A stretch of DNA of 24,916 nucleotides, taken from a virus. The notes under the pieces are model-generated. The model was not told the origin of the DNA. It was given only the letters and a program-made list of their open reading frames with translations, and ran no database searches. The stretch lies in IMG/VR virus record IMGVR_UViG_3300032092_000232, positions 1 to 24,916 of that record; one strand, written 5' to 3'. Every line of letters starts with the position of its first letter. Within the stretch, counting starts at the first letter, position 1. Of the stretch, positions 2 through 24,905 are shown piece after piece. The translations under genes were made by a program, and so were the position numbers.

Positions 2-2188
2 TTTGATTTACAGGACGAACTTAACAGTAAAATTTGGATTAAGACAAAGGGTGATAACTATGTTATTTCACAAAAAGTTAGAGAAAAACTTTTGGAAATC
101 GCTTACGAATTTATCGAGTCCTTAAAAGTGGATATCATTGTTTCAGATGTTCATTTAACAGGTTCTTTGGTAAATTACAATTGGTCCCAATATTCTGATT
201 TTGATTTACACATCATTGCGGACTTTAATCAGTTTCCAAAAAAAAGCCTACCTCTTTATGAAGAGTTGTTCAAACTAAAAAAAACAATATTTAATTCCGA
301 ACAAAATATTAAAATATACGGATACGATGTTGAGGTCTTTGTTCAGGATGAAAATGAAAAGGGTCATTCCGCAGGTATCTTCTCCCTAATTTCAAATGAT
401 TGGTTAGAAAAACCAAAAAAAGAAAAATTCGAAGTAAATAAGTCCGTTCTTAAAAAGAAGATAAACCAATGGACTGAAAAAATAGATAAGATTCTTGAGT
501 CAGCCGAAGAAGAAAAAGACCTACAAAAATCCAAAAAAATTATTAATAACCTAAAAACCAAGTTAAAAGAATATAGAAAAATTGGTTTAGAAAAGGGTGG
601 AGAAATGTCGTATGAAAATCTTGTATTTAAATACTTGAGAAGAAGTGGACATATTGAAAAATTGTTTAGTTTCAAAAAAGAAAGATTGGATAAGGGACTT
701 TCATTAAAAGAACAAGAGGAAGGTGGTATAAAAAACTTTATTAAAAATCTTTTTGGTTCTAAAGAAAAGAGAGAAAAAGTAGATGACCCAAAAAAGGCGG
801 ATTTAATTGAGCCTGATGTTGAGGAATTTTATAAAAATTTGGAATCAATAAAAGAGCCCGTATCACAACAGAAAAGAGGAAATATGAATTTCCAAAAAAA
901 TGTTGAGACAATTCAAATCGGTTTGAGTCTTTTAGGTTATGAATTACCTAAATTTGGTGTTGATGGTTTATATGGACCAGAAACTGGTGCTGCGGTTGAG
1001 AAATTTAAGATTGAAAATATAGGAGAAAAGGAGAAAGAATCTGATGTGTCATCATCAGATGATAAATCTAAAGTTATGCCTCCACTTTCTATGTCAAATA
1101 TTACTTCTAAATTTGGGCTAAGATGGGGTAGGATGCACTCAGGAGTAGATATAAAGGCAGTTTCAGGTACTGAAATTAAATCACCATCCGATGGTGAAGT
1201 CGTAGAATCCGATTTTAAACCAGGTGGCTGTGGAGGAACAATTGCTATAAAACACGGTGACAATATGAAGACAAGATATTGTCATTGTAAAAGAATTGAT
1301 GTTTCTAAAGGTGATACAGTTAAACAGGGCGATGTTATAGGTCTTTCAGGTGGCGGATATTCAGATAAAGGAAAAGGTAACTCAGAAGGTCCTCATTTAC
1401 ATTTTGAGGTTTATTCTAACGGAATACCTATTGACCCACTTACAGTGGTTGATAAAAAATACATAGGGAAATATGATTCATCTACATCACAGGATATAAC
1501 GGACTCAATCGCAACTCCTGAAATGGTATCAGTTATGATTGATAAATTAAAAACTAACGGTATTAAATCTGACGATTTAAAAAAATATTTAGATATAGTT
1601 AATACTGGTGGTGGTACCAACTTTATAGATTTAGATTTGACTACGGATTATGGATATAACACATATAAAAATATTTGTCAAAATTTCATAAATTCTCAGA
1701 ACTCAAATTTGTTAAACATTACAGGAAAAATGTTAGCCGATGCCGCTAAAGACACATATGAAAATCATAAAAAATATGTACCACCACAATTGGCGTTATC
1801 TCAATTAGCGATAGAAGGAGGTTTTAGTAGTAATCCTAACGCACGTACAATTAAAACTAAAAATCCATATAATGTAGGAAACGTGGATAGCGGAGAAAAT
1901 GTTTATCACTCAAGTGTAGAGAATGGTATACGTAAATATTATGATTTGATTGGTAGGAATTATTTAAGCGGCGGTAAAACCGCTTCCGATTTGGTTCAGA
2001 ATTTTGTTAACAAAAACGGTAATAGATATGCCTCCGCATCTAAATATGAAGAATCTTTAAAATCACTAATAAGTCGAATAAATAAAAATAATGTTAAGTC
2101 AGTAGTTTCTGATTTTTCTGATGTCTCTAATATTGAATCCTCAGATAACAAATTAAGTAAAGAAAAAACTAAAACAGATAAAATATAA
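2..2188 (+). CDS. Nucleotidyltransferase-like / peptidoglycan hydrolase fusion (5' partial)
   Basis: The frame is open to the left edge, so the true start lies outside; the first possible in-frame start inside is a TTG at 92. Residues are counted from the first full codon at base 2 (728 seen). Residues ~20-120 carry a polymerase-beta-type nucleotidyltransferase signature: G54-S55, then eleven residues later D66-F-D68. A charged helical stretch follows (~110-250). Residues ~295-340 resemble a PG_binding_1 domain (FGVDGLYGPET). Residues ~365-480 are an M23/LytM metallopeptidase with its zinc ligands H379xxxD383 and H465xH467, plus H428. Residues ~575-690 resemble a glucosaminidase or lysozyme-fold domain (QLALSQLAIEGGF, candidate acid E605; NPYNVGN). 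The cell-wall part probably cuts both peptide and glycan strands, as a tail-tip lysin or an endolysin. I see no membrane segment. The role of the nucleotidyltransferase domain is unknown. Confidence 0.88.
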   Translation, partial: FDLQDELNSKIWIKTKGDNYVISQKVREKLLEIAYEFIESLKVDIIVSDVHLTGSLVNYNWSQYSDFDLHIIADFNQFPKKSLPLYEELFKLKKTIFNSEQNIKIYGYDVEVFVQDENEKGHSAGIFSLISNDWLEKPKKEKFEVNKSVLKKKINQWTEKIDKILESAEEEKDLQKSKKIINNLKTKLKEYRKIGLEKGGEMSYENLVFKYLRRSGHIEKLFSFKKERLDKGLSLKEQEEGGIKNFIKNLFGSKEKREKVDDPKKADLIEPDVEEFYKNLESIKEPVSQQKRGNMNFQKNVETIQIGLSLLGYELPKFGVDGLYGPETGAAVEKFKIENIGEKEKESDVSSSDDKSKVMPPLSMSNITSKFGLRWGRMHSGVDIKAVSGTEIKSPSDGEVVESDFKPGGCGGTIAIKHGDNMKTRYCHCKRIDVSKGDTVKQGDVIGLSGGGYSDKGKGNSEGPHLHFEVYSNGIPIDPLTVVDKKYIGKYDSSTSQDITDSIATPEMVSVMIDKLKTNGIKSDDLKKYLDIVNTGGGTNFIDLDLTTDYGYNTYKNICQNFINSQNSNLLNITGKMLADAAKDTYENHKKYVPPQLALSQLAIEGGFSSNPNARTIKTKNPYNVGNVDSGENVYHSSVENGIRKYYDLIGRNYLSGGKTASDLVQNFVNKNGNRYASASKYEESLKSLISRINKNNVKSVVSDFSDVSNIESSDNKLSKEKTKTDKI

Positions 2189-2449: not shown

Positions 2450-3844
2450 ATGGGAAAACTAAAACCTATCGGAAGTGAAAAGTTAGAAGGTCTTGAAAAA
2501 ATCCAAAGAATAATGGAAATTGCAAGATATAAAGAAAATATACCCAACTCAATCAATGAGGTAAATTCAAATCATTATAATATAAAATTGGTTGATGGTA
2601 ACACATACCATATAGAAAAAGAAAAAAATGGTTACGTAATTAAAAGAACCGTAAATGAGGGTCAGTTGGATTATATTGAACCTATGAAAAACAGAAAGTA
2701 TTATCAATCTTATTCTCAAGCCTTAAAACGTTTAAATTTGATTACAAAAGAAGTTAATACTTTATCCGGTAATGAAGAAGGGGTTTCATTGTTTTCTGAA
2801 CAAAAAAAGTTTGTGTTAAAAACACCAAAGCCTGAAACACCACCGGCTCCCGCACCTGAACCCGCGCCCGCGCCGGCACCAATGCCATCCCCTGAACCAA
2901 TGGCAGGAACAGAAACTACACCTGATATGGGAATGGGGTCTGAAATGCCAACTGATGATATGCCTGATGATGATATGGGAATGGGTGAACCTTCAGATGA
3001 TATGCCTGATGATGATATGGGAATGGGTGAACCTTCAGATGATATGCCTGAAGAGGATGGTATTGTTTCGTTCAAAACAATTCAGAAGTTGACCGGCAAA
3101 TTAGGACAAAAATTAAGAAAAATTAATCAAGGTGAAGAGCCAATATCTGCGGATGATACAAAATATGTTATAAATTCTATATTATCTGCACTTGATTTGT
3201 CTGTGTTGTCAGATGAAGATATGGAAGAAATAATTGGTAGATTAGAAGATTCGGATTTTGAATCTGAAGATGATACCGATATGGAAGAACCGTCTGACGA
3301 TATGGAACCTGAAATTGAAGAACCAATGCCTGAATTACCTGAAGGTGAAATGACCGAGGAAGATATGTACGAATATATCGAAGGTATGATTGGTGGAGGA
3401 GACGATTTAGGGTTTAAAAAAGAACCAAAAGAAGTGAACATACCAAAGGCAATTGCTAGTGCATATGCTAAAGAGGCAAGAAATCAATTAGGCGATATGT
3501 TAGAATCGGATGATTTAGACGGAGTTGAGGGTATTTTTGACTCAGTTTTTTCAGAATCTAAAGTTGACAGTATAATTAAATCATATTTCGTAAAAACCGA
3601 TTCAGAAAAAAAATTCATTCAAGAGCAAAAACAAAAAAAGTTCTTAACTGAAAAGGCGAAAAAAGTAAAAATTATGAGAGAGGTTAAAACATTGTCTGAA
3701 TCATATCAGCAAGAAAGTATCTCATCAAAATTTTTGGACAGATATACAAAAGCAAATTTCATCGGAAAAACTAATAAGAAAAATTTAGTTTTTGAGGTGA
3801 ATGGTAAACAATACAAAATCACCCCAGACGGAGCAATTCTATGA
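2450..3844 (+). CDS. Acidic, proline-rich phage protein, probably virion or prohead component
   Basis: A 464-residue protein of unknown function. Residues ~1-120 form a basic, mixed alpha/beta N-terminus. Residues ~125-150 are a Pro/Ala-rich linker made of PAPAP steps. Residues ~155-205 are an acidic Met/Asp/Gly tract with a 14-residue unit (DDMPDDDMGMGEPS) in tandem. Residues ~205-265 are a predicted helical domain (FKTIQKLTGKLGQKLRKI), followed by a second acidic tract and a charged, helical C-terminus. No transmembrane segment is seen. The stop overlaps the next gene's start (ATGA at 3841-3844), so the two are probably translationally coupled. Its position just before packaging genes suggests a head protein; this is inferred. 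Confidence 0.75.
   Translation: MGKLKPIGSEKLEGLEKIQRIMEIARYKENIPNSINEVNSNHYNIKLVDGNTYHIEKEKNGYVIKRTVNEGQLDYIEPMKNRKYYQSYSQALKRLNLITKEVNTLSGNEEGVSLFSEQKKFVLKTPKPETPPAPAPEPAPAPAPMPSPEPMAGTETTPDMGMGSEMPTDDMPDDDMGMGEPSDDMPDDDMGMGEPSDDMPEEDGIVSFKTIQKLTGKLGQKLRKINQGEEPISADDTKYVINSILSALDLSVLSDEDMEEIIGRLEDSDFESEDDTDMEEPSDDMEPEIEEPMPELPEGEMTEEDMYEYIEGMIGGGDDLGFKKEPKEVNIPKAIASAYAKEARNQLGDMLESDDLDGVEGIFDSVFSESKVDSIIKSYFVKTDSEKKFIQEQKQKKFLTEKAKKVKIMREVKTLSESYQQESISSKFLDRYTKANFIGKTNKKNLVFEVNGKQYKITPDGAIL
2954..3037 (+). repeat. Two 42-bp in-frame tandem repeats (acidic tract)
   Basis: Two copies of a 42-base unit (2954-2995 and 2996-3037) that read identically by eye, with a third partial copy from 3038. 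Each encodes DDMPDDDMGMGEPS. The length is a multiple of three, so copy number can change without a frameshift. Confidence 0.85.
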
Positions 3845-5011: not shown

Positions 5012-6247
5012 ATGGCAAAATATAGAAAAAACATTAGTGAAGCACCAATTGATTACGAAGGTCCTGAAAGAATGGACCCAAGTATTGAAAGAAAAATTAC
5101 AACTAAAACTACGCCTTATGCGGACCATCCAGGTTTACCTAAACTTGACCGAGATATTGTAGAAATTATATCCTCAGAGAGATTCAAACAATCTGTTGAG
5201 AACATAAGAAGATTTATGGGTGACACCTCGTCAATACAAGGACCACCTCAACAAGTTCTTATGCAGTTAATAACATCCGCTATGAAATTGTTTCCAAAAA
5301 TTGCAAGTATCGAGCAAGGACACAATGAATTTTTGGAAAAATTAGCGGTTGATTTAGTCGTTAAAGAAATGGCGATTCCTGATGGAGCACTTCAATTTGA
5401 TGCTAAATTGGAATCGAGTATGATGAGTGCAGCCGAAGGAATGAGAGGTGAATCGGAAGAACCTTCACCTGACGAAATTAAAGACGCCTTTGGTGGTGCA
5501 AACGAAAACGCCGATGAGTTAGAGGCTTTTATGGATGCTATGGAACAGTTTGACCAACAAAAGGCTAAAAGAAGATTTATTAATGCACTTATTGGTGGAG
5601 CGTCCAAAAAAGGTCACTATATGTACCAATTAGTTGGTGAAGAATTAAATAGATTACATCCTGAATTAGTTCGTCTATATGGTATGTCACAATCCATATT
5701 AGACCATCTCTATTGGATTTACCCTGAAAGTATGTCATCAGCTATGGCCGCCGCTGGTGAAGGTCAAGCCGGTCAATCAGAAATCGACACTGAAACTGAC
5801 CCACCTACAGTAATTGCTCGTGGTGTTACTTTCCCAATTTTATTACACGAATTAGTTAAAGGTGTTTTCGAAGTATTAGGGACTCACGGTTTACCTGATG
5901 ACCCTCGTCAAGCGGAAATGGTTATTGCATCACAAGATACAGTTCCTGCTGAGATTTGGGATTTAAGATTAGGACCTATTTTTTGGGAGAAATTCACCGC
6001 AGCATATCCCGATGAACTATTCGAGGAAGATAAAAAATACATTCAACATTACTTATTCCAAAGATTCTCGGCACTTGACCCAAAGAAATTTTTCAAATTA
6101 ACGAAATTTATTTTGTCAGGTGACCCTAAAGGTAATCAAGTTCTTCAAATTATGGTTGATGAAATCGTAGAAGAATTAAAACAACAAGATAAAGATTCTA
6201 TGTTTGGAAGTAATGATGACGATGAAGATGAAGAACCATTTGTATAA
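5012..6247 (+). CDS. Conserved protein upstream of terminase; unknown function
   Basis: A 411-residue, mostly helical acidic protein with no known catalytic motif. Residues ~55-130 are regular amphipathic helix. Residues ~140-190 are a Glu/Asp/Ser/Gly-rich insert. Residues ~190-360 are a more ordered region with many Trp, Tyr, His and Pro residues (HPELVRLYGMSQSILDHLYWIYPE; TFPILLHELVKGVFEVLGTHG, described here in two parts). The C-terminus is a run of Asp and Glu. The final bases overlap the terminase start (TAATGA at 6244-6249). This is where many tailed phages place the small terminase subunit, but the protein is much longer than T4 gp16 (about 160 residues) and shows no clear DNA-binding helix-turn-helix, so I do not assign that role. 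Confidence 0.8.
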   Translation: MAKYRKNISEAPIDYEGPERMDPSIERKITTKTTPYADHPGLPKLDRDIVEIISSERFKQSVENIRRFMGDTSSIQGPPQQVLMQLITSAMKLFPKIASIEQGHNEFLEKLAVDLVVKEMAIPDGALQFDAKLESSMMSAAEGMRGESEEPSPDEIKDAFGGANENADELEAFMDAMEQFDQQKAKRRFINALIGGASKKGHYMYQLVGEELNRLHPELVRLYGMSQSILDHLYWIYPESMSSAMAAAGEGQAGQSEIDTETDPPTVIARGVTFPILLHELVKGVFEVLGTHGLPDDPRQAEMVIASQDTVPAEIWDLRLGPIFWEKFTAAYPDELFEEDKKYIQHYLFQRFSALDPKKFFKLTKFILSGDPKGNQVLQIMVDEIVEELKQQDKDSMFGSNDDDEDEEPFV

Positions 6248-8022
6248 TGAGTTATACTAAAGAACAAGTATTAATAGAATATGTGAAGTGCGTAAAGGAT
6301 ACCCCTTACGCACTTCGTACATATTTAGAAACCTATGATAATACTGTTTCAAAATATGTTCCTTTAGAGTTATTTCCCGACCAAGTATCTTTATTGGATG
6401 ATTACGAAAATTACAATGAAAATATTGCATTAAAGTATCGTCAGGCAGGTGTATCTACCGTAACTGCGGCATGGGCATCTAAAAAATTAGTATTCGCCAA
6501 AAAAACAAAACCTGAAAAACTTCTAATCATTGCAAATAAACTTGACACCGCTCAAGAAATGGCAAATAAGGTTAGGTCGTTTGTTGACCAATGGCCGTCT
6601 TGGGTTGATGTTGGATTCGCCAAAGAAAAAAATTCACAAAGACATTACAAATTAACAAATGGTTGTGAGGTTAAAGCGGTTGCAACATCTAAAGATGCTT
6701 TACGTGGATATACACCAACAATTCTTATTTTTGATGAGGCGGCGTATATTGAAGCCGATGCCGATTTTTGGTCTGCTTGTATGGCATCACTATCTACGGG
6801 TGGTAAAGTTATAGTTATTTCAACACCAAACGGTCACGACCCAATTTATTATGAGATTTATGACCAATCTATCAGAACGATGAATGATTTTAAAATCTCT
6901 GAAATGTATTGGTATAAAGACCCACGATACACTAAGGATTTATATTTGGTACAAACGGATGATATAATTGATTATTTTTTAAATAAAGAAAATTATAGTC
7001 AAGATTTAATTAAAGTAATGGATGACTATGACGTTACAAATCCGGAACAATATGAGAAACTGAAACATTATATGTCCTTAGGGTACAAACCGTCGTCAAC
7101 TTGGTTTGAATCTATGGTAAAAAAACTAAAGTACGACAAACGAAAAGTTTCTCAGGAATTGGAATGTAATTTCTTGGGTTCGGGTGATAACGTATTTGAT
7201 TCTAAAACATTACAAAAAATTAGAGAGAATCAGATTACGGAACCACAAAACAAGATGATGTCAAACTCTCTTTGGATTTGGAATGAGCCGGTAACAGGAC
7301 ATAAATACGTAATGGGTGTCGATGTCTCAAGAGGAGATTCTGAAGACTTTTCAACATTTCAAATTATTGACTTTGATACAAGAGAGCAGGTCGCCGAATT
7401 CGTTGGGAAACTACCTCCTGATATTATGGCGGAGATTTGTTTTAAATGGGCCAATATGTATTCAGCGTTTGTAGTAATTGATATCACCGGTGGTATGGGA
7501 GTATCTACATCAAGAAAAATGCAAGAACTCGGATATAAAAATTTATATGTTGATGGTGTAGATTATCAAAACAAATGGAAATATGACCCAAAACAAGCCG
7601 AAAAAATACCGGGAATCAACTTTAACGCAAAAAGAGTTCAGATTATCGCTGCGTTAGAGGAATCAGTTAGACACGATTTCAAATTAAAGAGTCCAAGGTT
7701 ACTAAACGAGATGAATAGTTTCGTGTATATTAATGGTAGACCTGACCATCAAAAAGGTGGACACGACGACTTAATTATGTCAATCGCTATGGCAATGTAT
7801 GTTGCAGAGGCATCATTTAGTCAACTAACCAAAGTAACAGAACAAACAAAGGCGATGATAAATTCTTGGACCATGCAAACTGACGATACCCCATCGAAAT
7901 CAATTGCCTTTAACCCACAAATCCCTAATTTTCCATCAAGATATGACGACCCTAATTTAAATTCTGGGGCATCAAGAGAGGATTATATTAAATACGGTTG
8001 GTTATTTGGGGGGATGAGATAA
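6247..8022 (+). CDS. 17: Terminase large subunit (gp17-like)
   Basis: The 591-residue DNA-packaging motor, an ATPase fused to a nuclease, which docks on the portal and fills the prohead. The ATPase half shows a Walker-A-like P-loop YRQAGVST (residues 64-71), where the usual GKT/S is replaced by GVST, and a Walker B ILIFDEAAYIE with D163-E164. The RNase-H-like nuclease half shows its three acidic clusters: VMGVDVSRGD (D359), VVIDITGG (D412) and GGHDDLIMS (D507/D508). The length is close to T4 gp17 (610 residues). It starts inside the upstream stop. Unlike T4, the next gene is the portal rather than sheath and tube genes. Confidence 0.97.
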   Translation: MSYTKEQVLIEYVKCVKDTPYALRTYLETYDNTVSKYVPLELFPDQVSLLDDYENYNENIALKYRQAGVSTVTAAWASKKLVFAKKTKPEKLLIIANKLDTAQEMANKVRSFVDQWPSWVDVGFAKEKNSQRHYKLTNGCEVKAVATSKDALRGYTPTILIFDEAAYIEADADFWSACMASLSTGGKVIVISTPNGHDPIYYEIYDQSIRTMNDFKISEMYWYKDPRYTKDLYLVQTDDIIDYFLNKENYSQDLIKVMDDYDVTNPEQYEKLKHYMSLGYKPSSTWFESMVKKLKYDKRKVSQELECNFLGSGDNVFDSKTLQKIRENQITEPQNKMMSNSLWIWNEPVTGHKYVMGVDVSRGDSEDFSTFQIIDFDTREQVAEFVGKLPPDIMAEICFKWANMYSAFVVIDITGGMGVSTSRKMQELGYKNLYVDGVDYQNKWKYDPKQAEKIPGINFNAKRVQIIAALEESVRHDFKLKSPRLLNEMNSFVYINGRPDHQKGGHDDLIMSIAMAMYVAEASFSQLTKVTEQTKAMINSWTMQTDDTPSKSIAFNPQIPNFPSRYDDPNLNSGASREDYIKYGWLFGGMR

Positions 8023-8082: not shown

Positions 8083-9906
8083 ATGGAAAATAATCAAAAT
8101 CTTACAGTTTGGCAGAGACTGAGCAAAACATTTGGACCGTATTCATTGTTAGGACAGGACTACCCAACTTATCAATATGACAAAACGGAGTTATTAAAAA
8201 CAAACTCTAAACAACAATACGAAAAAGAAAAGTTACAGGCTCAACAAACTTATTACTTAGCCAATCAGTGGACTAAAATTGAGAATAATTTATATTCTCA
8301 AGCAACATATTATGAACCAACGAGGTTGGCGTCATTTTACGATTTTGAATCAATGGAGTATACGCCAGAGATTTCTGCGGCACTTGACATTTACGGTGAG
8401 GAATCAACTACGGTAAATCAAGATGGACAAATGGTTCAAATTTATTCTGATTCACAAAGAATAAAATCAATTCTAACTGATTTATTTAATAACGCCTTAG
8501 ATATCAACACAAATTTAACGATGTGGACAAGAAATACTTGTAAATACGGTGATAATTTTGTGTATTTGAAACTTGACCCTGAAAAGGGAGTTGTGGGTTG
8601 TATGCAATTACCTAACATCGAAATCGAAAGATTGGAGATGGGTATGGCGTCCAAAACTTATAATACTGAAGCAGACCCAAAAAACACAGGCTTGAAATTT
8701 AAATGGAAGGCCCGTGATATGGAATTTAATTCTTGGGAGGTTGCACATTTTAGGTTGTTAGGTGATGATAGAAAACTTCCATATGGAACATCTATGTTAG
8801 AAAAAGCGAGACGTATTTGGAAACAATTAGTATTAGCGGAAGACGCGATGTTAATTTATCGTACCTCAAGAGCCCCTGAAAGAAGAGTTTTCAAGGTATT
8901 TGTAGGAAATATGGATGACCAAGATGTAGAAGCATACGTACAACGTGTTGCAAATAAATTCAAACGTCAACAAGTGGTAGACCATAAAACAGGAAATGTC
9001 GATATGAGATTCAACCAAATGGCGGTTGACCAAGATTATTTTGTTCCTGTACGTGACCCTGCACAAGCAAGTCCTATAGATACACTACCCGGAGCAACTA
9101 ACTTGGCGGAAATTGCTGATATTGAATACATCCAAAAGAAATTATTAACCGCACTTCGTGTTCCAAAAGCGTTTTTAGGTTTTGAGGAACCTGTTGGTGA
9201 TGGTAAGAATCTATCATTGATGGATATTCGTTTTGCAAGAACAATTAATAGAATTCAAAAAAGTATGTTGGCTGAAATGAATAAAATTGCCATCATACAT
9301 TTATTCTTATTAGGTTTTGAGGACGAATTAAGTAATTTTACACTTGGGTTAAATAATCCATCTCGCCAAGCGGATTTGTTGGCAATTGACGTATGGAAAG
9401 AGAAGATTATACTTTATAAAGACGCCGTTACCGCAATTGAGGGTATCGCTCCTGTATCTGTTTCTTGGGCTAAAAAACACGTACTTGGATTCTCTGACGA
9501 AGAAATCAAACTAGACTTACAACAACAAAGAATTGAGAAAGCGGTGGCTGCTGAACTTACAAATACCCCAACAATTATTGTTCATACGGGTATATTTGAT
9601 AATGTCGATAAACTATATGGTCAACAAACAGGTACAACCGCCGCCGCGGGTGCTACACCACCACCACCTCCTGAAGGCGGAGGAGGAATGGGTGATATGG
9701 GAGGAGGCGAAATTCCACCGCCACCGCCAGGTCCTGAACCAGGTGGCGAAGCAGGAGTTACTCCCGAATCAAAAAGAAGAGATAATATGAATATATTACT
9801 CGAAAGTAATGATTTAATTAATGAAGATGACTTCATAGATTTATCAAGAGCGAGAAATTCTTTGGGTGATATTGGGGATGAACTTGATAGAATACTAAAT
9901 GACTAA
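8083..9906 (+). CDS. 20: Portal protein (gp20-like)
   Basis: Forms the dodecameric ring at the unique capsid vertex, nucleates prohead assembly and is the DNA channel to which terminase and neck attach. The gp20 core is easily recognised: LPYGTSMLEKARRIWKQLVL begins at residue 232, followed by a segment reading IYRTSRAPERRVFKVFVGN, then FVPVRD and DIEYIQKKLLTALRVPKAFL. At 607 residues it is longer than T4 gp20 (524). The extra length is mainly a C-terminal tail with Pro and Gly runs (~525-560) and an acidic end. The start is an ATG with no Shine-Dalgarno sequence, 20 bases after a late-promoter-like octamer. Confidence 0.97.
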   Translation: MENNQNLTVWQRLSKTFGPYSLLGQDYPTYQYDKTELLKTNSKQQYEKEKLQAQQTYYLANQWTKIENNLYSQATYYEPTRLASFYDFESMEYTPEISAALDIYGEESTTVNQDGQMVQIYSDSQRIKSILTDLFNNALDINTNLTMWTRNTCKYGDNFVYLKLDPEKGVVGCMQLPNIEIERLEMGMASKTYNTEADPKNTGLKFKWKARDMEFNSWEVAHFRLLGDDRKLPYGTSMLEKARRIWKQLVLAEDAMLIYRTSRAPERRVFKVFVGNMDDQDVEAYVQRVANKFKRQQVVDHKTGNVDMRFNQMAVDQDYFVPVRDPAQASPIDTLPGATNLAEIADIEYIQKKLLTALRVPKAFLGFEEPVGDGKNLSLMDIRFARTINRIQKSMLAEMNKIAIIHLFLLGFEDELSNFTLGLNNPSRQADLLAIDVWKEKIILYKDAVTAIEGIAPVSVSWAKKHVLGFSDEEIKLDLQQQRIEKAVAAELTNTPTIIVHTGIFDNVDKLYGQQTGTTAAAGATPPPPPEGGGGMGDMGGGEIPPPPPGPEPGGEAGVTPESKRRDNMNILLESNDLINEDDFIDLSRARNSLGDIGDELDRILND

Positions 9907-9930: not shown

Positions 9931-10656
9931 ATGAAAATAGGTGTATTAAAATCAAGAGTTGAGAAATTACTTTCTGAGTCTTACGGAAAAGGAACTTTTA
10001 AAGATGAGATTAAAAATTTCAATAGAAATGTTTTATCAAATAAAAACATATCTAAATTATTTTTTCTTTACGACGAATTATCGACAAATAAAGGATATGA
10101 CCAAAAATTGGCGGAGGATTTTGTTTTTGAATCAATCACGATGTTTGAAAACATTATTAATAAGACAGACAAAAGAGATTTAGAAAAACTTAAAAAGTGG
10201 TCAATTGGTATTAACTCTCACAATCAATACACAGATATAGATAACTTGTTTTATAATACAGGAGATGTGTTACATTTGGAAAACAAAGTTAGAAGTAAAA
10301 AAGTAATTGTTGAGGGATTAAAAAAGACTCCTGTTGTTGAAAGCAAGGAAACAATTCTGTTACCTTTGAGTTCTATGGTCAAAGTTGCGAATAAATCTAT
10401 TGAAGAATTTGTATCTAATTTAAACGAATCCGAAAAGAAAGAACTTAATTTATTCCTTAAAGAAGATGAGTCAGTTTTATCTGAACAATTTCAAAATTTG
10501 AAGGATGAAGCGGTAGTTAAATTAGTTGTTGTTTTAGAATCTGAATCTGACGAATTAGTTAAAAACACAATTAATGAGACAATAGATAATATTAAATCTA
10601 AAAAATTTGACAGATTAGAGTATTTTAAGTTAAAGAATTTGGTTAATACACTATAA
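9931..10656 (+). CDS. Hypothetical protein in the gp67/gp68 position (candidate prohead core protein)
   Basis: A 241-residue, highly charged, almost entirely helical protein, rich in Lys, Glu, Asn and Ile. I recognise no family. The N-terminus (MKIGVLKSRVEKLLSESYGKG) is an amphipathic helix ending in a possible prohead-protease-like site (LSE|S). In T4 the small core proteins gp67 and gp68 lie between portal gene 20 and protease gene 21; this gene and the next occupy that place. The prohead core role is inferred from position and composition alone. It begins 24 bases after the portal gene with a TATTTATT element between. Confidence 0.7.
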   Translation: MKIGVLKSRVEKLLSESYGKGTFKDEIKNFNRNVLSNKNISKLFFLYDELSTNKGYDQKLAEDFVFESITMFENIINKTDKRDLEKLKKWSIGINSHNQYTDIDNLFYNTGDVLHLENKVRSKKVIVEGLKKTPVVESKETILLPLSSMVKVANKSIEEFVSNLNESEKKELNLFLKEDESVLSEQFQNLKDEAVVKLVVVLESESDELVKNTINETIDNIKSKKFDRLEYFKLKNLVNTL

Positions 10657-11214: not shown

Positions 11215-11943
11215 ATGAACGAACTTAAAATATTGAAACCCTATGAATCTGGAAAAGGGATTCTTATTGAGTATGATGCAGGATATGTGTCACCAAAAGA
11301 ATTTGGAAATCAAAATATTTTGATGGAATCCAAAAGTTTCATGGACCACAGTAAACCATTTGAGTTTTATGCGGTTCTACAAAAATATAATACACCAAAT
11401 CGTAATGGTAGGATTTATCCTGAAAAAATATTAAAAAGAGAAGCGGAAAATTATAAGAAAATGATTAATAAGGGTGTTTCACTTTCTGAGTTGAACCACC
11501 CTGAATCATCTTTAATTGATTTGGATAGAGTTTCTCATATTATCACTGAAGTATGGTGGGATGGAATAATATTGATGGGTAAATTAAGATTACTAACATC
11601 ACCCGGATTCCATGAAAGAGGGATTTGTTCTACAAAGGGAGATTTAGCAGCAAATTACTTAAGACAAGGCGTTACTTTAGGTATTTCATCAAGAGGTGTT
11701 GGTTCCCTTAAAAAGATAGGAGAACAAAATGAAGTTCAGGACGATTTTGAATTAATTTGTTTTGACTTAGTTTCTTCACCGTCAACACCAGGTGCGTATC
11801 TTTTTTCTAAACCTGAAGAAAGGGGTAATTTTGAGGAGAACTTGGAGGAGGAGAATAAAACACAAAGAGAACGTCACGTAGGACCCGAAGCAAACAATTC
11901 ATTAGATTTAATGAAACGATTAAATACATATCTCGATAAGTAA
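11215..11943 (+). CDS. 21: Prohead core protease (gp21-like)
   Basis: The serine protease that matures the T4-type prohead by cutting capsid, scaffold and core proteins, then itself. At 242 residues it is close to T4 gp21 (212). The family's three catalytic regions are all present: ELNHPESS with H95, LGISSRGVGS with S158/S159, and FELICFDLVSSPSTPGAYL with D184. The opening FYAVLQKYNTPNRNGRIYP is also typical. The C-terminal ~40 residues are Glu-rich and look like a self-cleaved tail. A matching cleavage site occurs in this window's capsid protein. The start follows a late-promoter-like octamer by 13 bases. Confidence 0.94.
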   Translation: MNELKILKPYESGKGILIEYDAGYVSPKEFGNQNILMESKSFMDHSKPFEFYAVLQKYNTPNRNGRIYPEKILKREAENYKKMINKGVSLSELNHPESSLIDLDRVSHIITEVWWDGIILMGKLRLLTSPGFHERGICSTKGDLAANYLRQGVTLGISSRGVGSLKKIGEQNEVQDDFELICFDLVSSPSTPGAYLFSKPEERGNFEENLEEENKTQRERHVGPEANNSLDLMKRLNTYLDK

Positions 11944-13887: not shown

Positions 13888-15699
13888 ATGGGAGCATTAT
13901 TAGAATCAGGTCTTGTTGGTAACATCGGGTTAAAACACCTTAAAGTTATCAAAGAAGATACTATCAACAAATGGGACAAACTAGGGTTCCTTGAAGGTCT
14001 TAAAGGCCACCTAAAAGAAAATGTTGCACAACTTTATGAAAACCAAGCATCACATTTGATTAACGAAGCATCTTCAGAATCTTCTAACGGAGCATTTGAA
14101 ACAGTTGTTTTCCCAATCGTGAGACGTGTTTTCTCTAAATTGTTAGCAAACGAAATCGTATCAGTACAAGCGATGAACTTACCAATCGGTAAATTGTTCT
14201 ACTTCGTACCTAAAATCCAAGGATATTCAGGAGGAACTTCTGATATGTCAGGAGAACATTACGCACCTGTAGGTTCGCCAGGTAATTATCCTGGTAATCC
14301 AAATTCAGGTTATGATGGTTCAGGCGCATACGCTAAAAATCTTTATGATTTATTTTATGAAGGTGGTGAAGCAGGACTTGACCCTCCAGGATTGTTCGAC
14401 TACTCAAAAGGTCGTTGGTCAGCAGTTACAGGTATAACTGTTACTTACGCATGGAGTCCGACAACAGGTGAATTAATCCAATCAGGATACACTAGTGGTA
14501 CTTACAGAAAGGCAATCATCGTTATGTCAGGATTCTCTGATTCAGGAGCTGGAAAATTAATTGGTCCTGATGGTCAAGAGATTGATTCTGAAACATTCCT
14601 TTCTGACCTAAAAATCATCGGTGTTACGACTAATACAACCACATCTGCTAACGCATTAAATCCATATTTGTTCAGAGTTGTGACTCAGAAATATGGTAAA
14701 GGTATGGTACAATACGGAAGTAATGCATCAACAACATTCCCAGGTTCAGGAAATGGTGGTTCATATAATAATATTTGTAATGCAGCAGGATTCATCTTCT
14801 TAGAAGTTGATTTACAGGTTCCTGCTTGTATTAACTGTGGTTCAGACTCTTTGGACGGATACACAGGTTCAACATTCTCGTCATCAACCGCTACAAACAA
14901 CGCATTTACTGCAGTTTGGAGACGTTATGCGGAACTTGAATTTGAAGATAAAATTGGTGAGGTTTCTTTTGACCTACAGTCAGTGACCGTATCGGTTTCT
15001 GAAAGAAAACTAAGAGCACAATGGTCACCTGAACTTGCACAAGACGTTGCAGCATTCCATAACATCGATGCGGAAGCTGAATTGACAGCGTTATTGTCTG
15101 AACAAGTTGCAGCTGAAATCGACCGTGAAATTTTACGTGACTTACGTAAAGGAGCGGCTTGGAACCTTCGTTGGGACTACAACGGATGGAAACGTCTGTC
15201 TTCAACAGGAACTACTCCATACACTCAAAAAGACTGGAACCAAACTTTGATTACAGCAATTAACCAAATTTCTGCACAAATCCACAAGTCAACTCTTCGT
15301 GGTGGCGCTAATTGGATTGTTGTATCTTCTGAGGTTTCTGCAATTTTTGATGACTTGGAATACTTCCACGTATCAAACGCTTCACCTGAGCAAGACCAGT
15401 ACAACATGGGTATTGAAAGAGTAGGTACATTAGCAGGTCGTTACCAAGTGTTCCGTGACCCTTACTTCCCACCAAATACGGTGTTGATTGGTCACAAAGG
15501 TACTTCGTTACTTGACACAGGTTACATTTACGCACCGTATGTACCTCTACAATTAACTCCAACTATGTACAATCCATTTAACTTCACACCTATCAAAGGT
15601 ATCATGACACGTTACGCTAAGAAAATGGTTAATAACCGTTTCTACGGACGTATCACAGTTGATGGTGTACGTACATTCGACTTGAGAGAATTGAGATAA
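13888..15699 (+). CDS. 23: Major capsid protein precursor (gp23-like)
   Basis: HK97-fold major capsid protein of the T4 type, 603 residues against 521 in T4. The N-terminal propeptide keeps the T4 layout (INKWDKLGFLEGLKG, LYENQ) and ends at HLINE|A, a consensus prohead protease site with cleavage expected after E60. The core matches strongly: LRAQWSPELAQDVAAFHNID, EAELTALLSEQVAAEIDREI, then AGRYQVFRDPYFPPNTVLIGHKG (two segments) and a YIYAPYVPLQLTP strand. Extra length lies in a Gly/Ser/Tyr-rich region at about residues 115-330. Its codon use is visibly richer in C-ending codons than its neighbours, as expected for a very highly expressed gene. It follows the scaffold gene by 29 bases with no promoter motif between. 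Confidence 0.98.
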   Translation: MGALLESGLVGNIGLKHLKVIKEDTINKWDKLGFLEGLKGHLKENVAQLYENQASHLINEASSESSNGAFETVVFPIVRRVFSKLLANEIVSVQAMNLPIGKLFYFVPKIQGYSGGTSDMSGEHYAPVGSPGNYPGNPNSGYDGSGAYAKNLYDLFYEGGEAGLDPPGLFDYSKGRWSAVTGITVTYAWSPTTGELIQSGYTSGTYRKAIIVMSGFSDSGAGKLIGPDGQEIDSETFLSDLKIIGVTTNTTTSANALNPYLFRVVTQKYGKGMVQYGSNASTTFPGSGNGGSYNNICNAAGFIFLEVDLQVPACINCGSDSLDGYTGSTFSSSTATNNAFTAVWRRYAELEFEDKIGEVSFDLQSVTVSVSERKLRAQWSPELAQDVAAFHNIDAEAELTALLSEQVAAEIDREILRDLRKGAAWNLRWDYNGWKRLSSTGTTPYTQKDWNQTLITAINQISAQIHKSTLRGGANWIVVSSEVSAIFDDLEYFHVSNASPEQDQYNMGIERVGTLAGRYQVFRDPYFPPNTVLIGHKGTSLLDTGYIYAPYVPLQLTPTMYNPFNFTPIKGIMTRYAKKMVNNRFYGRITVDGVRTFDLRELR

Positions 15700-17308: not shown

Positions 17309-17797
17309 TTAACAGTACGGCGGAGAACATTTTTTCTTTCCGTCTAAACCGGGCATTTTTCCTTTACAAACTTGTACTCCGTAACCGTTCGAATATGCTG
17401 AGGGAAATACTTTGTATTTTGATTTTGCCGCAGAATATCCTCTAGAACATAATTTTGTTCCTGTTTTTTTTCTACCTTCTTCCATCATACCTGTGAAAGA
17501 CGCATCCTCAATATCTTGTACGCCATCACCTTTAATATGATTCATCATAAAGTCAAATACTTGGTCCATATTGTTTTTGGCTTCAGCGATATGGTCCTGA
17601 GCCCAATCGTGACCGTCATCTAATATTTCAGTTACCATATCTTGGTCTAACTCTAATAACATATCACATTGTCTTCTCATTTGTTCTAAATTTGAAAAGA
17701 ACATATATCTATCAGAATAATCTTCGTGAGATTCATTTAATACTTTTTTAACAATACGACTTAAATCGGATTCCGTTAACTTAACTATTTTTTTCAT
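17309..17797 (-). CDS. Small Cys-containing protein with prohead-targeting-like N-terminus
   Basis: A 162-residue protein with three parts. Residues 1-23 (LTESDLSRIVKKVLNES) are an amphipathic helix ending in LNE|S, close to a T4 prohead protease site. Residues ~25-105 are acidic and helical. The C-terminal ~50 residues form a basic module with four cysteines (LCSRGYSAAKSKYKVFPSAY; VQVCKGK; CSPPYC). That module resembles small domains I recall from many uncultured phage proteins, with no function known to me. The ATG overlaps the stop of the upstream structural gene (ATGA). I infer a virion or core protein processed by gp21. Confidence 0.75.
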   Translation of the reverse strand: MKKIVKLTESDLSRIVKKVLNESHEDYSDRYMFFSNLEQMRRQCDMLLELDQDMVTEILDDGHDWAQDHIAEAKNNMDQVFDFMMNHIKGDGVQDIEDASFTGMMEEGRKKTGTKLCSRGYSAAKSKYKVFPSAYSNGYGVQVCKGKMPGLDGKKKCSPPYC

Positions 17798-23352: not shown

Positions 23353-24099
23353 TTATTTTACCATATTTTGAATTAAATCAAAATAAACTTTTTTGTATTT
23401 TTTCATACTTGACCTAATTTCTTTGGTAGATAGATTGGTCATATCTCTCAATGAGAGTAGTATAATGTTTTTATTGAACTTGTTATTATCGGTACTTACA
23501 AATATTTGGTCGTAATTAATGAACACCTCGTAAAGAGATTCTCCTAATTTTTTTTCGTTTTCTGATAAATTTTGGTCCTGTAAAATCACATACAATCTTG
23601 CCAGAAAAGATTCTATAACCCTTTCAGTGTCAAAATCGTCATCATTATCTATATAGTAGATTAAATCCTCACGGTCATTGTTCTCCAAATCCGAAGATAT
23701 ATCTTCATATGATATTTTCCTATTAGTATCTTTTTGGTCTTTTATAATTTGACCCATAAGATAATTCTTACAAATAGTACCGAAATAGGAGTACGCTTTC
23801 TTTTCTTTTGACGGTTTGAATTTGTCAATTTTCGTCATCAAAAAAGAATGGGTGTCAGTATGGATTTCTTGAAAGTCCATATCTTTTCGGTATAATTTAT
23901 ATCGTCTAATAATTGACGATATCATCTTATCTAGTGGTTTTCTAAGACTTAGGTTGTATATTTTGTTCTTTTCCTCAAATGTAGTAGCCGACAAATATAA
24001 TCTTACCGCAAGTTCTTCTTTTTCATCAAAATAATTATCCGACTTTGGTTTTCTCCCTTTCTTTTTTAAATCATCAGTTTGTTTTTCATCTTGATTCAT
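23353..24099 (-). CDS. 55: Late transcription sigma factor (gp55-like)
   Basis: A 248-residue protein resembling the sigma factor that directs host RNA polymerase to T4-type late promoters. After a basic N-terminus, residues ~60-140 match sigma region 2 as seen in gp55 relatives: a helical stretch with MDFQEIHTDTHSFLMTKIDK, then KKAYSYFGTICKNYLMGQII followed by DQKDTNRKISYEDI. A variable acidic part follows. Residues ~212-240 (LLSLRDMTNLSTKEIRSSMK) look like a helix-turn-helix, where T4 gp55 (185 residues) has no region 4. The start overlaps the stop of the glycosyltransferase gene by one base (TAATG). Its presence fits the repeated octamer before late genes. Confidence 0.85.
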   Translation of the reverse strand: MNQDEKQTDDLKKKGRKPKSDNYFDEKEELAVRLYLSATTFEEKNKIYNLSLRKPLDKMISSIIRRYKLYRKDMDFQEIHTDTHSFLMTKIDKFKPSKEKKAYSYFGTICKNYLMGQIIKDQKDTNRKISYEDISSDLENNDREDLIYYIDNDDDFDTERVIESFLARLYVILQDQNLSENEKKLGESLYEVFINYDQIFVSTDNNKFNKNIILLSLRDMTNLSTKEIRSSMKKYKKVYFDLIQNMVK

Positions 24100-24905
24100 T
24101 AAACAGTTTCGGGTTCGAATTTTATATCCCTGTCAACAGTGAAGAAATGTTCTTTTTTTGCGGAATCAATCCAAAATTTTATTTCTTCAGGTGTCATAGA
24201 TTCAGAGCCGTTTTTATAATTCCAAAAAATTGACCCTTCTCTGAGATTAAGGTGTTTATAACCAATTTTTGGTATGGTCATAATCTTTAAATTGTTATAC
24301 GTTAATCTCAACATTAGTTCATAAACAAATGTTAATTTTATCGAAGGTTTAAATTTACCGTGTTGTTCGAAAACTTCTTTTTTGATTACCATACCAGATG
24401 ATTGGAAATTTTGATAATTTTGTAGAGTTTCGTTTGTTAAAATTCCCATCTCTTGTGAGAAATTTGCTGCGAATGTTGCCTCATTTGTGAATCCTGCAAA
24501 TAATCCTTTACTATCTACGTCAACCACAATTGGTAAAAACGCATCTGCATTTGAATATGCCTCAGAATAAAGTTTTACATTCTTAAACCAAATATTTGAA
24601 TATTCGTCATCAAATTCATAAAAAGATACCCACTTAGATTTGGAATTTTCTACACCATAATTAATCTGTGCTTGATAGTTAGGAGCATCTTTCCAAATTA
24701 ATTTTTTAACATTAAGTTCTCCAAAATCAAAACCTTCTAAATGACTAACTAATTTGTCTTCGTCAGTATGGACTATAATTAATTCATTGAAATTAGTTTT
24801 TTGTGTTTTTAATGCTTCGATGCTTTTTTCAAACAATTCTGTAAAGTCTTTAGCAGATGCTGACTTTATTGGTAGTATTACTGATAAGTCTATAAAGTTT
24901 TCCAT
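24099..24905 (-). CDS. Family-2-like glycosyltransferase (GT-A fold)
   Basis: A 268-residue protein. The GT-A signature is visible: LSVILPIK at residues 7-14, ELIIVHTDED at 41-50, the NYGVENSKSKW stretch at 82-92, and a YEFDDEY acidic motif around 98-100 in the DxD place. A later KKEVFEQHGKF segment is also family-like. Such enzymes transfer a sugar from a nucleotide sugar to protein, lipid or modified DNA; the acceptor here is unknown. No signal peptide or membrane segment, so cytoplasmic. It begins 11 bases from the window edge and leads into gp55 with a one-base overlap. Confidence 0.8.
   Translation of the reverse strand: MENFIDLSVILPIKSASAKDFTELFEKSIEALKTQKTNFNELIIVHTDEDKLVSHLEGFDFGELNVKKLIWKDAPNYQAQINYGVENSKSKWVSFYEFDDEYSNIWFKNVKLYSEAYSNADAFLPIVVDVDSKGLFAGFTNEATFAANFSQEMGILTNETLQNYQNFQSSGMVIKKEVFEQHGKFKPSIKLTFVYELMLRLTYNNLKIMTIPKIGYKHLNLREGSIFWNYKNGSESMTPEEIKFWIDSAKKEHFFTVDRDIKFEPETV

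What the first reader, a model, noticed from the sequence alone, without database searches (positions are those of the whole stretch)
2..2188. Nucleotidyltransferase domain fused to a two-enzyme cell-wall hydrolase
One reading frame joins a polymerase-beta-type nucleotidyltransferase signature (GS x11 DFD) to a peptidoglycan-binding domain, an M23 peptidase with all zinc ligands, and a glucosaminidase-like domain. The lysin half alone is unusual because it could cut peptide and glycan bonds in one chain. I know of no described function for a nucleotidyltransferase attached to it. It may modify a host molecule, regulate the lysin, or be a virion-delivered toxin-like enzyme. The downstream baseplate protein lacks a lysozyme domain, so this protein might supply the tail's cell-wall activity.
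Basis: partly seen in the sequence, partly recalled or inferred. Interest (0 to 1): 0.78.

Follow-up and report, generated by a model that had tools for sequence, protein, structure and literature searches.

The report
Nucleotidyltransferase carrying swappable cell-wall hydrolases
Many aquatic phages carry an enzyme that probably attaches nucleotides to some target, and in some of them, including this one, interchangeable cell-wall-cutting enzymes are fused to its end; a relative of the first enzyme has been detected in phage particles, so the whole protein may be delivered into the host at infection.

Summary
Window 2-2188 is one frame (about 9 start codons missing): a Pol-beta-fold nucleotidyltransferase (NTase; residues 1-237, all three catalytic motifs), a PG-binding domain, an M23 peptidase (all ligands) and a probable glucosaminidase. 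It is not an assembly artefact: 15 distinct NTase-lysin fusions were found, arising at least twice. The NTase belongs to a phage-restricted family of unknown function (phrog_36119), usually a stand-alone ~245-aa protein. In the window's relatives gene order is fixed, but the hydrolase tail after NTase residue 237 is an exchanged cassette: DNA identity of 77-90% stops at nt 711-712 and resumes near the next gene. Tails include M23, Amidase_2, Phage_lysozyme2, VanY, GH19 and a beta-lactamase-like domain. The NTase of cyanophage S-CREM2 (gp156) is in that phage's published virion proteome. Other members carry T4-like capsid-targeting leaders, and NTase-free versions of this lysin carry a propeptide-like leader where the NTase sits. 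Best reading: a virion-packaged multi-enzyme entry protein with unknown NTase substrate. Virion location of the window protein itself is inferred, not shown. Rivals: endolysin with an NTase passenger, or tail lysin. New variant of a known kind.

The parts
2..2188 (+). NTase-lysin gene, 5' end cut by the contig start (about 9 codons missing)
   Evidence: open frame; relatives give the start
2..712 (+). nucleotidyltransferase domain, residues 1-237, phrog_36119
161..205 (+). catalytic signature GSLVNYNWSQYSDFD, residues 54-68
   Evidence: invariant G, S, D, D in A2; position
332..334 (+). third catalytic carboxylate E111 (VEVF)
   Evidence: invariant in A2 and A3
698..712 (+). LSLKE: end of the NTase, 5' border of the exchanged cassette and possible protease site
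   Evidence: DNA identity to L004, L016 and L019 stops at 711-712; junction list
713..2188 (+). hydrolase cassette
   Evidence: NTase-free homologues
896..1006 (+). peptidoglycan-binding domain, residues 299-335
   Evidence: PF01471 E 5e-4, slightly below cut-off; above it in homologues
1130..1438 (+). M23 peptidase, residues 377-479; H379, D383, H465, H467
   Evidence: PF01551 E 6.5e-28; residues
1763..2083 (+). probable glucosaminidase, residues 588-694, candidate catalytic E605
   Evidence: PF01832 E 3e-4, below cut-off, repeated in homologues; weak model whose best PDB match is LytB
2450..3844 (+). next gene of the conserved block, MGKLKPIG protein with leader-like N-terminus; function unknown
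   Evidence: synteny; leader profile on homologues
6247..8022 (+). terminase large subunit
   Evidence: phrog_2 E 1.4e-38
8083..9906 (+). portal protein
   Evidence: phrog_213 E 3.5e-67
11215..11943 (+). head maturation protease
   Evidence: phrog_207 E 2.2e-42
13888..15699 (+). major head protein
   Evidence: phrog_138 E 2e-65

Best explanation
The protein is a virion-carried, multi-enzyme entry protein of a T4-like myovirus. Its constant part is an active Pol-beta-fold nucleotidyltransferase. Its variable part is a cassette of peptidoglycan hydrolases exchanged between related phages at a fixed border, the end of the NTase. Proposed working: the protein is packaged during head assembly and leaves with the DNA; the hydrolases open peptidoglycan at entry and the NTase transfers a nucleotide to a host target in the cytoplasm, in the manner of T4 Alt. 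A head-protease cut at LSLKE may separate the halves. Shown here: fusion, intact motifs, cassette exchange, at least two fusion origins, restriction to phages in the data searched. Shown in the literature for a stand-alone homologue: presence in virions (S-CREM2 gp156). Inferred: virion location of the window protein, early action, cleavage, catalytic activity. Unknown: the NTase substrate.
For: Catalytic motifs invariant across fused and stand-alone forms. Homologue S-CREM2 gp156 is in the virion proteome, 6 unique peptides, 15.2% coverage (PMC10665884; family membership). T4-like capsid-targeting leader on 18 of 70 NTases against 13 of 608 other genes, including the NTase-lysozymes L126 and L130. 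In S-CREM2 the same pattern picks 5 of 219 genes, 4 of them non-structural virion proteins (Fisher p 0.012). NTase-free homologues of this lysin carry a conserved propeptide-like leader in the NTase's place. The gene sits in the head-gene block. A free ~200-aa Amidase_2 protein exists in fused genome G001, so the fusion is an additional hydrolase there. Cassette border at nt 711-712 in three comparisons.
Against: No virion data for any fused protein. Window-clade NTases lack the cleavable leader of the cyanophage lineage. MS of CsCl virions can include contaminants, and coverage of gp156 is modest. The leader pattern was chosen after seeing NTase N-termini, and related sequences are not independent. 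A hydrolase inside a head would have to leave through the tail tube and act from the correct side of the wall; how is not explained. NTase activity is untested.
Confidence: 0.48

Rival explanations
1. It is an endolysin: made late, kept in the cytoplasm, released by a holin to lyse the cell. The NTase came from the neighbouring gene by stop-codon loss and is a passenger or tunes lysis timing.
For: The hydrolase domains and PG-binding domain are those of known endolysins. L024 shows what looks like a gene-gene junction, with a lysin leader inside the fusion. The S-CREM2 evidence concerns a stand-alone NTase only.
Against: Free endolysin candidates exist in the same phage group, including one in a fused genome. 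Homologous lysins carry a propeptide-like leader. The gene sits with head genes.
Confidence: 0.27
2. It is a tail-associated virion lysin, with the NTase on the tail or baseplate.
For: M23 and Phage_lysozyme2 domains are common in tail lysins (PF18013 is named phage tail lysozyme). The family is virion-associated in S-CREM2, and that study does not say where in the particle.
Against: No tail structural domain in the fusion; the gene is next to head and packaging genes. Leaders resemble those of head cargo.
Confidence: 0.15
3. The two halves have unrelated jobs in the infected cell (for example nucleotide or RNA metabolism for the NTase) and the fusion is a neutral accident of gene order.
For: The NTase is stand-alone in 77 of 103 tree rows, sits beside Hsp20, regA and DNA polymerase genes in some cyanophages, and is also joined to other partners such as a deaminase.
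Against: Fusion to hydrolases arose at least twice, in well-separated lineages and with different hydrolases. The frame is kept open through every cassette.
Confidence: 0.1

Closest known systems
phrog_36119, including S-CREM2 gp156, S-CRM01 g125, Caulobacter phage Cr30 and Maribacter phage Molly_1 proteins
   Same: The NTase domain is a member over its full length
   Different: Those members are stand-alone; the window protein has a hydrolase tail
Polyvalent proteins of phages and conjugative elements (Iyer et al. 2017, PMC5512222)
   Same: Unlike enzymes in one chain, wall hydrolases among them, proposed to be packaged and injected
   Different: No MuF, relaxase, portal or Ard-type domain found; another NTase family (theirs is RelA/SpoT-like); one fixed domain with exchangeable tails
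T4 internal head proteins and Alt (PMC9026906)
   Same: Enzyme or cargo carried in the head and ejected; N-terminal targeting leader in part of the NTase family
   Different: Alt is an ADP-ribosyltransferase; no T4 internal protein has a wall hydrolase; window-clade NTases lack the cleavable leader
Modular multi-domain phage lysins and endolysins
   Same: Same hydrolase and PG-binding domains
   Different: N-terminal module is an NTase, and the other candidate endolysins are separate genes
Aminoglycoside and lincosamide nucleotidyltransferases (AAD(9), AadA, LinB), MNT, CCA enzyme
   Same: NTase core; best PDB fold matches
   Different: TM-scores 0.2-0.3, no sequence-level family match, different helical half

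Membership tests
Pol-beta nucleotidyltransferase superfamily | hG[GS], [DE]h[DE]h and h[DE]h motifs | tested here: met
   G54 S55, D66 F67 D68, E111
Pol-beta nucleotidyltransferase superfamily | NTase core fold | tested here: met
   AlphaFold2 pLDDT 87; most top PDB matches are NTases, though TM-scores are low
Pol-beta nucleotidyltransferase superfamily | nucleotide transfer activity | not testable with these tools
   needs an enzyme assay
phrog_36119 | full-length profile match | tested here: met
   E 1.3e-39, profile positions 21-247 of 247
RlaP, RelA/SpoT or SMODS-type NTases | Pfam profile match to these families | tested here: not met
   Pfam at E up to 10 gives only NTP_transf_2 and MTPAP-like among NTases
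M23 peptidase | HxxxD and HxH metal and catalytic residues in a profile match | tested here: met
   E 6.5e-28; H379, D383, H465, H467
Glucosaminidase (PF01832 / GH73-like) | profile match above the curated cut-off | tested here: not met
   21.8 bits against 30.2; similar sub-threshold hits in four homologues
Glucosaminidase (PF01832 / GH73-like) | fold | tested here: inconclusive
   pLDDT 61; best match LytB 7pj3, E 0.17, probability 0.93
T4-type capsid-targeted internal protein | N-terminal leader with [FYL] at about 4 and 7 and a [LI]xE end | tested here: not met
   absent in the window clade; present in 18 of 70 NTases of the other lineage
T4-type capsid-targeted internal protein | presence in the virion | tested here: inconclusive
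   met for stand-alone homologue S-CREM2 gp156 in the literature; no data for the window protein
Polyvalent protein | domains of disparate activity in one chain, in late-gene context | tested here: met
   domains; head genes downstream
Polyvalent protein | packaged and injected | not testable with these tools
   needs virion proteomics
Endolysin (sole lysis enzyme) | no other candidate endolysin in the genome | tested here: not met
   free Amidase_2 protein in fused genome G001; the window contig itself is too short to tell

The most novel reading that the evidence does not exclude
A widespread phage NTase is a virion-delivered effector that nucleotidylates a host target early in infection, and it doubles as a platform on which phages exchange wall-opening enzymes to match host peptidoglycan: an entry-enzyme counterpart of exchangeable receptor-binding tips.
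Probability: 0.33. Interest if true: 0.83.

Novelty: new variant of a known kind. Interest (0 to 1): 0.64.

Why it matters
It gives a first functional lead for an abundant NTase family of unknown function (593 relatives in one capped viral scan) and links it to the virion. If the virion reading is right, the NTase joins T4 Alt as a host-modifying enzyme carried in by T4-like phages. The sharp cassette border gives natural fusions of many wall hydrolases to one carrier. The leader patterns offer a simple, testable way to predict which unknown phage proteins are virion cargo.

Tried and rejected
Assembly artefact or frameshift: rejected, many independent contigs. Bacterial origin of the NTase: 13 hits in 84,980 species genomes, all MAG contigs. 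Defence-system NTase: only weak PADLOC hits, none for the window domain. DrrA-like AMPylator: DrrA is the best PDB profile hit (E 0.003), but the match covers only the shared core, so it is not used. Prohead cleavage at LSLKE: fused proteins have [LIM]xE at or close to the junction, but many stand-alone relatives end in the same letters, so it is only suggestive. Lysin genes beside stand-alone NTases: found only in Cr30 and L150 (GH19-like), not a rule. bS21 gene as a link to the Bacteroidota lake phages of PMC9723584: the two reverse-strand ORFs tested next to the major head protein are not bS21, so the host assignment stays uncertain. Structure of the glucosaminidase segment: model too weak. 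Literature on an NTase-endolysin fusion: none found. Virion data for Maribacter phage Molly: no proteome in the paper.

Full report
OBSERVATION. The frame 2-2188 is open over 728 codons. Residues 1-237 match phrog_36119, a family of unknown function, over nearly its full length (E 1.3e-39). The signature is G54-S55-x10-D66-F-D68 with E111 as third carboxylate. These residues are invariant across 33 fused and stand-alone relatives and, with S55 replaced by G in cyanophages, across 20 divergent ones. The AlphaFold2 model (pLDDT 87) has the NTase core followed by a helical half; its PDB matches are mostly NTases (AAD(9), MNT, CCA enzyme, LinB, AadA), with low TM-scores. The lysin half holds a PG-binding domain, an M23 peptidase with all ligands and a probable glucosaminidase. 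Relatives show that only about nine N-terminal residues are missing.

FAMILY. The NTase is phage-restricted in the data searched: hundreds of viral relatives, 45 phage records, and only 13 MAG contigs among 84,980 bacterial and archaeal species. Most copies are stand-alone, about 235-260 aa.

FUSION AND EXCHANGE. In the window's clade the usual order is a 275-aa gene, a ClpA-like gene on the reverse strand, often Hsp20, a KTSC-like 80-aa gene, NTase, the MGKLKPIG protein, two or three further genes, terminase, portal (the names ClpA, Hsp20 and KTSC are my reading of the sequences, not a profile result). In some contigs the NTase stops at or just after LSL(x)E; in others a hydrolase tail continues in frame. 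Tails found: M23 + glucosaminidase (window, L022, L023; L024 with two M23), Amidase_2 + PG-binding (L004), Amidase_2 + M23 + PG-binding (L016), M23 + Phage_lysozyme2 + VanY (L002), the same plus a beta-lactamase-like domain (L017), PG-binding + Phage_lysozyme2 (L021), VanY (L020), M23 + PG-binding + GH19 (L048), M23 alone (L060), and others. At DNA level the window matches L004 at 90% from 1 to 711, then not at all until 2425, then at 84% over 4.6 kb; L016 and L019 give the same 5' border at 711-712. The border is thus the end of the NTase. A second lineage (L126, L130; cyanophage-like) has the NTase joined through a hydrophobic stretch to other lysozymes: GH24-like in L130 and phrog_5867 endolysin in L126. 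On a tree of 103 representatives the lysin label needs five changes, at least two forced by strongly supported branches.

WHERE IT ACTS. Three lines point to the virion. First, S-CREM2 gp156 is a family member and is in Table 3 of that phage's published virion proteome, with 6 unique peptides and 15.2% coverage (PMC10665884). Second, T4 internal proteins enter the head through a 10-19 residue N-terminal leader, with positions 4 and 7 important for targeting and 8 and 10 for processing (PMC9026906). A pattern for such a leader picks out 18 of 70 NTases against 13 of 608 other genes. In S-CREM2 it picks five genes, four of them non-structural virion proteins: SAM hydrolase, an APH-like kinase, a cytidylyltransferase and gp13. 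I wrote the pattern after seeing NTase N-termini, so the first count is partly circular and its rows are related; the S-CREM2 count is a separate check but small, and gp156 itself does not match the strict pattern. Third, a search with the lysin half returned NTase-free homologues that nearly all start with a conserved leader ending in a hydrophobic-x-E pattern (18 distinct). Where the NTase is present it stands in the leader's place, and L024 keeps a leader-like stretch at the junction. A profile of this leader also matches unrelated proteins of these phages: 34 at E up to 1 against 4 for shuffled sequences, 11 against 1 at E up to 0.1. That these leaders target the head is an inference.

AGAINST A PLAIN ENDOLYSIN. 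The longest fused contig (G001, 261 kb) and four long stand-alone contigs carry an orthologous free ~200-aa Amidase_2 protein, and several stand-alone genomes have a free GH19 lysin. The NTase-lysin is therefore an additional hydrolase, at least in G001. The window contig (24.9 kb) cannot be tested for this.

MECHANISM. Most likely (0.48): a virion-packaged protein whose hydrolases help entry and whose NTase modifies a host target. Shown: domains, intact motifs, exchange, repeated fusion and, for one homologue in the literature, virion presence. Packaging of the window protein, timing, cleavage, activity and substrate are inferred or unknown. Window-clade NTases lack the cleavable leader of the cyanophage lineage, which is the main internal weakness.

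COMPARISON AND NOVELTY. Injected multi-enzyme proteins with wall hydrolases are known as polyvalent proteins (PMC5512222), and head-packaged enzymes are known from T4. The use of this NTase as a fixed platform for exchangeable hydrolases in T4-like phages was not found in the literature searched. I rate it a new variant of a known kind.

Noticed in passing
window 17309-17797 (-); L037:2679-3182; L200; L203; head-block genes of L043-L045: Unrelated proteins of this phage group share an N-terminal leader ending in a hydrophobic-x-E pattern, perhaps a head-targeting signal of this lineage.
   Followed up: partly
L017:5971-9399, residues 999-1119: The largest NTase-lysin (1142 aa, four hydrolase-type domains) ends in a class A beta-lactamase-like domain (PF13354, E 3.8e-10).
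   Followed up: no
L026:5971-8298 and L092:5968-8154, C-terminal ends: Both fused proteins end in a segment that reads like an alpha/beta hydrolase (GFSKGG / GFSQGG) without a Pfam hit.
   Followed up: no
L262, L264, L265: The lysin's PG-binding region is joined to an N-terminal domain that reads like a DHH-type phosphoesterase (HQDLDG motif), another odd enzyme-lysin fusion.
   Followed up: no
L172:3137-4693: NTase fused behind a dCMP-deaminase-like domain (PF00383, E 1e-12) and a segment with an HExxH-like motif.
   Followed up: no
L176-L179 (S-CREM2 genome): A T4-like leader pattern picks out four of the non-structural proteins of the S-CREM2 virion proteome, which could serve as a general predictor of virion cargo.
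   Followed up: partly
L023:4029-5629 and L025:3224-4921: A second leader-bearing lysin lies just upstream of the NTase-lysin (one gene in L025, split in two in L023), so some phages carry two such hydrolases in tandem.
   Followed up: partly
window 9931-10656 (+): Weak match to the C-terminal domain of TubZ-like tubulins (PF22453, E 0.0026, below cut-off), between portal and head protease.
   Followed up: no
window 24099-24905 (-): Probable family 2 glycosyltransferase (PF00535, E 5.7e-5).
   Followed up: no
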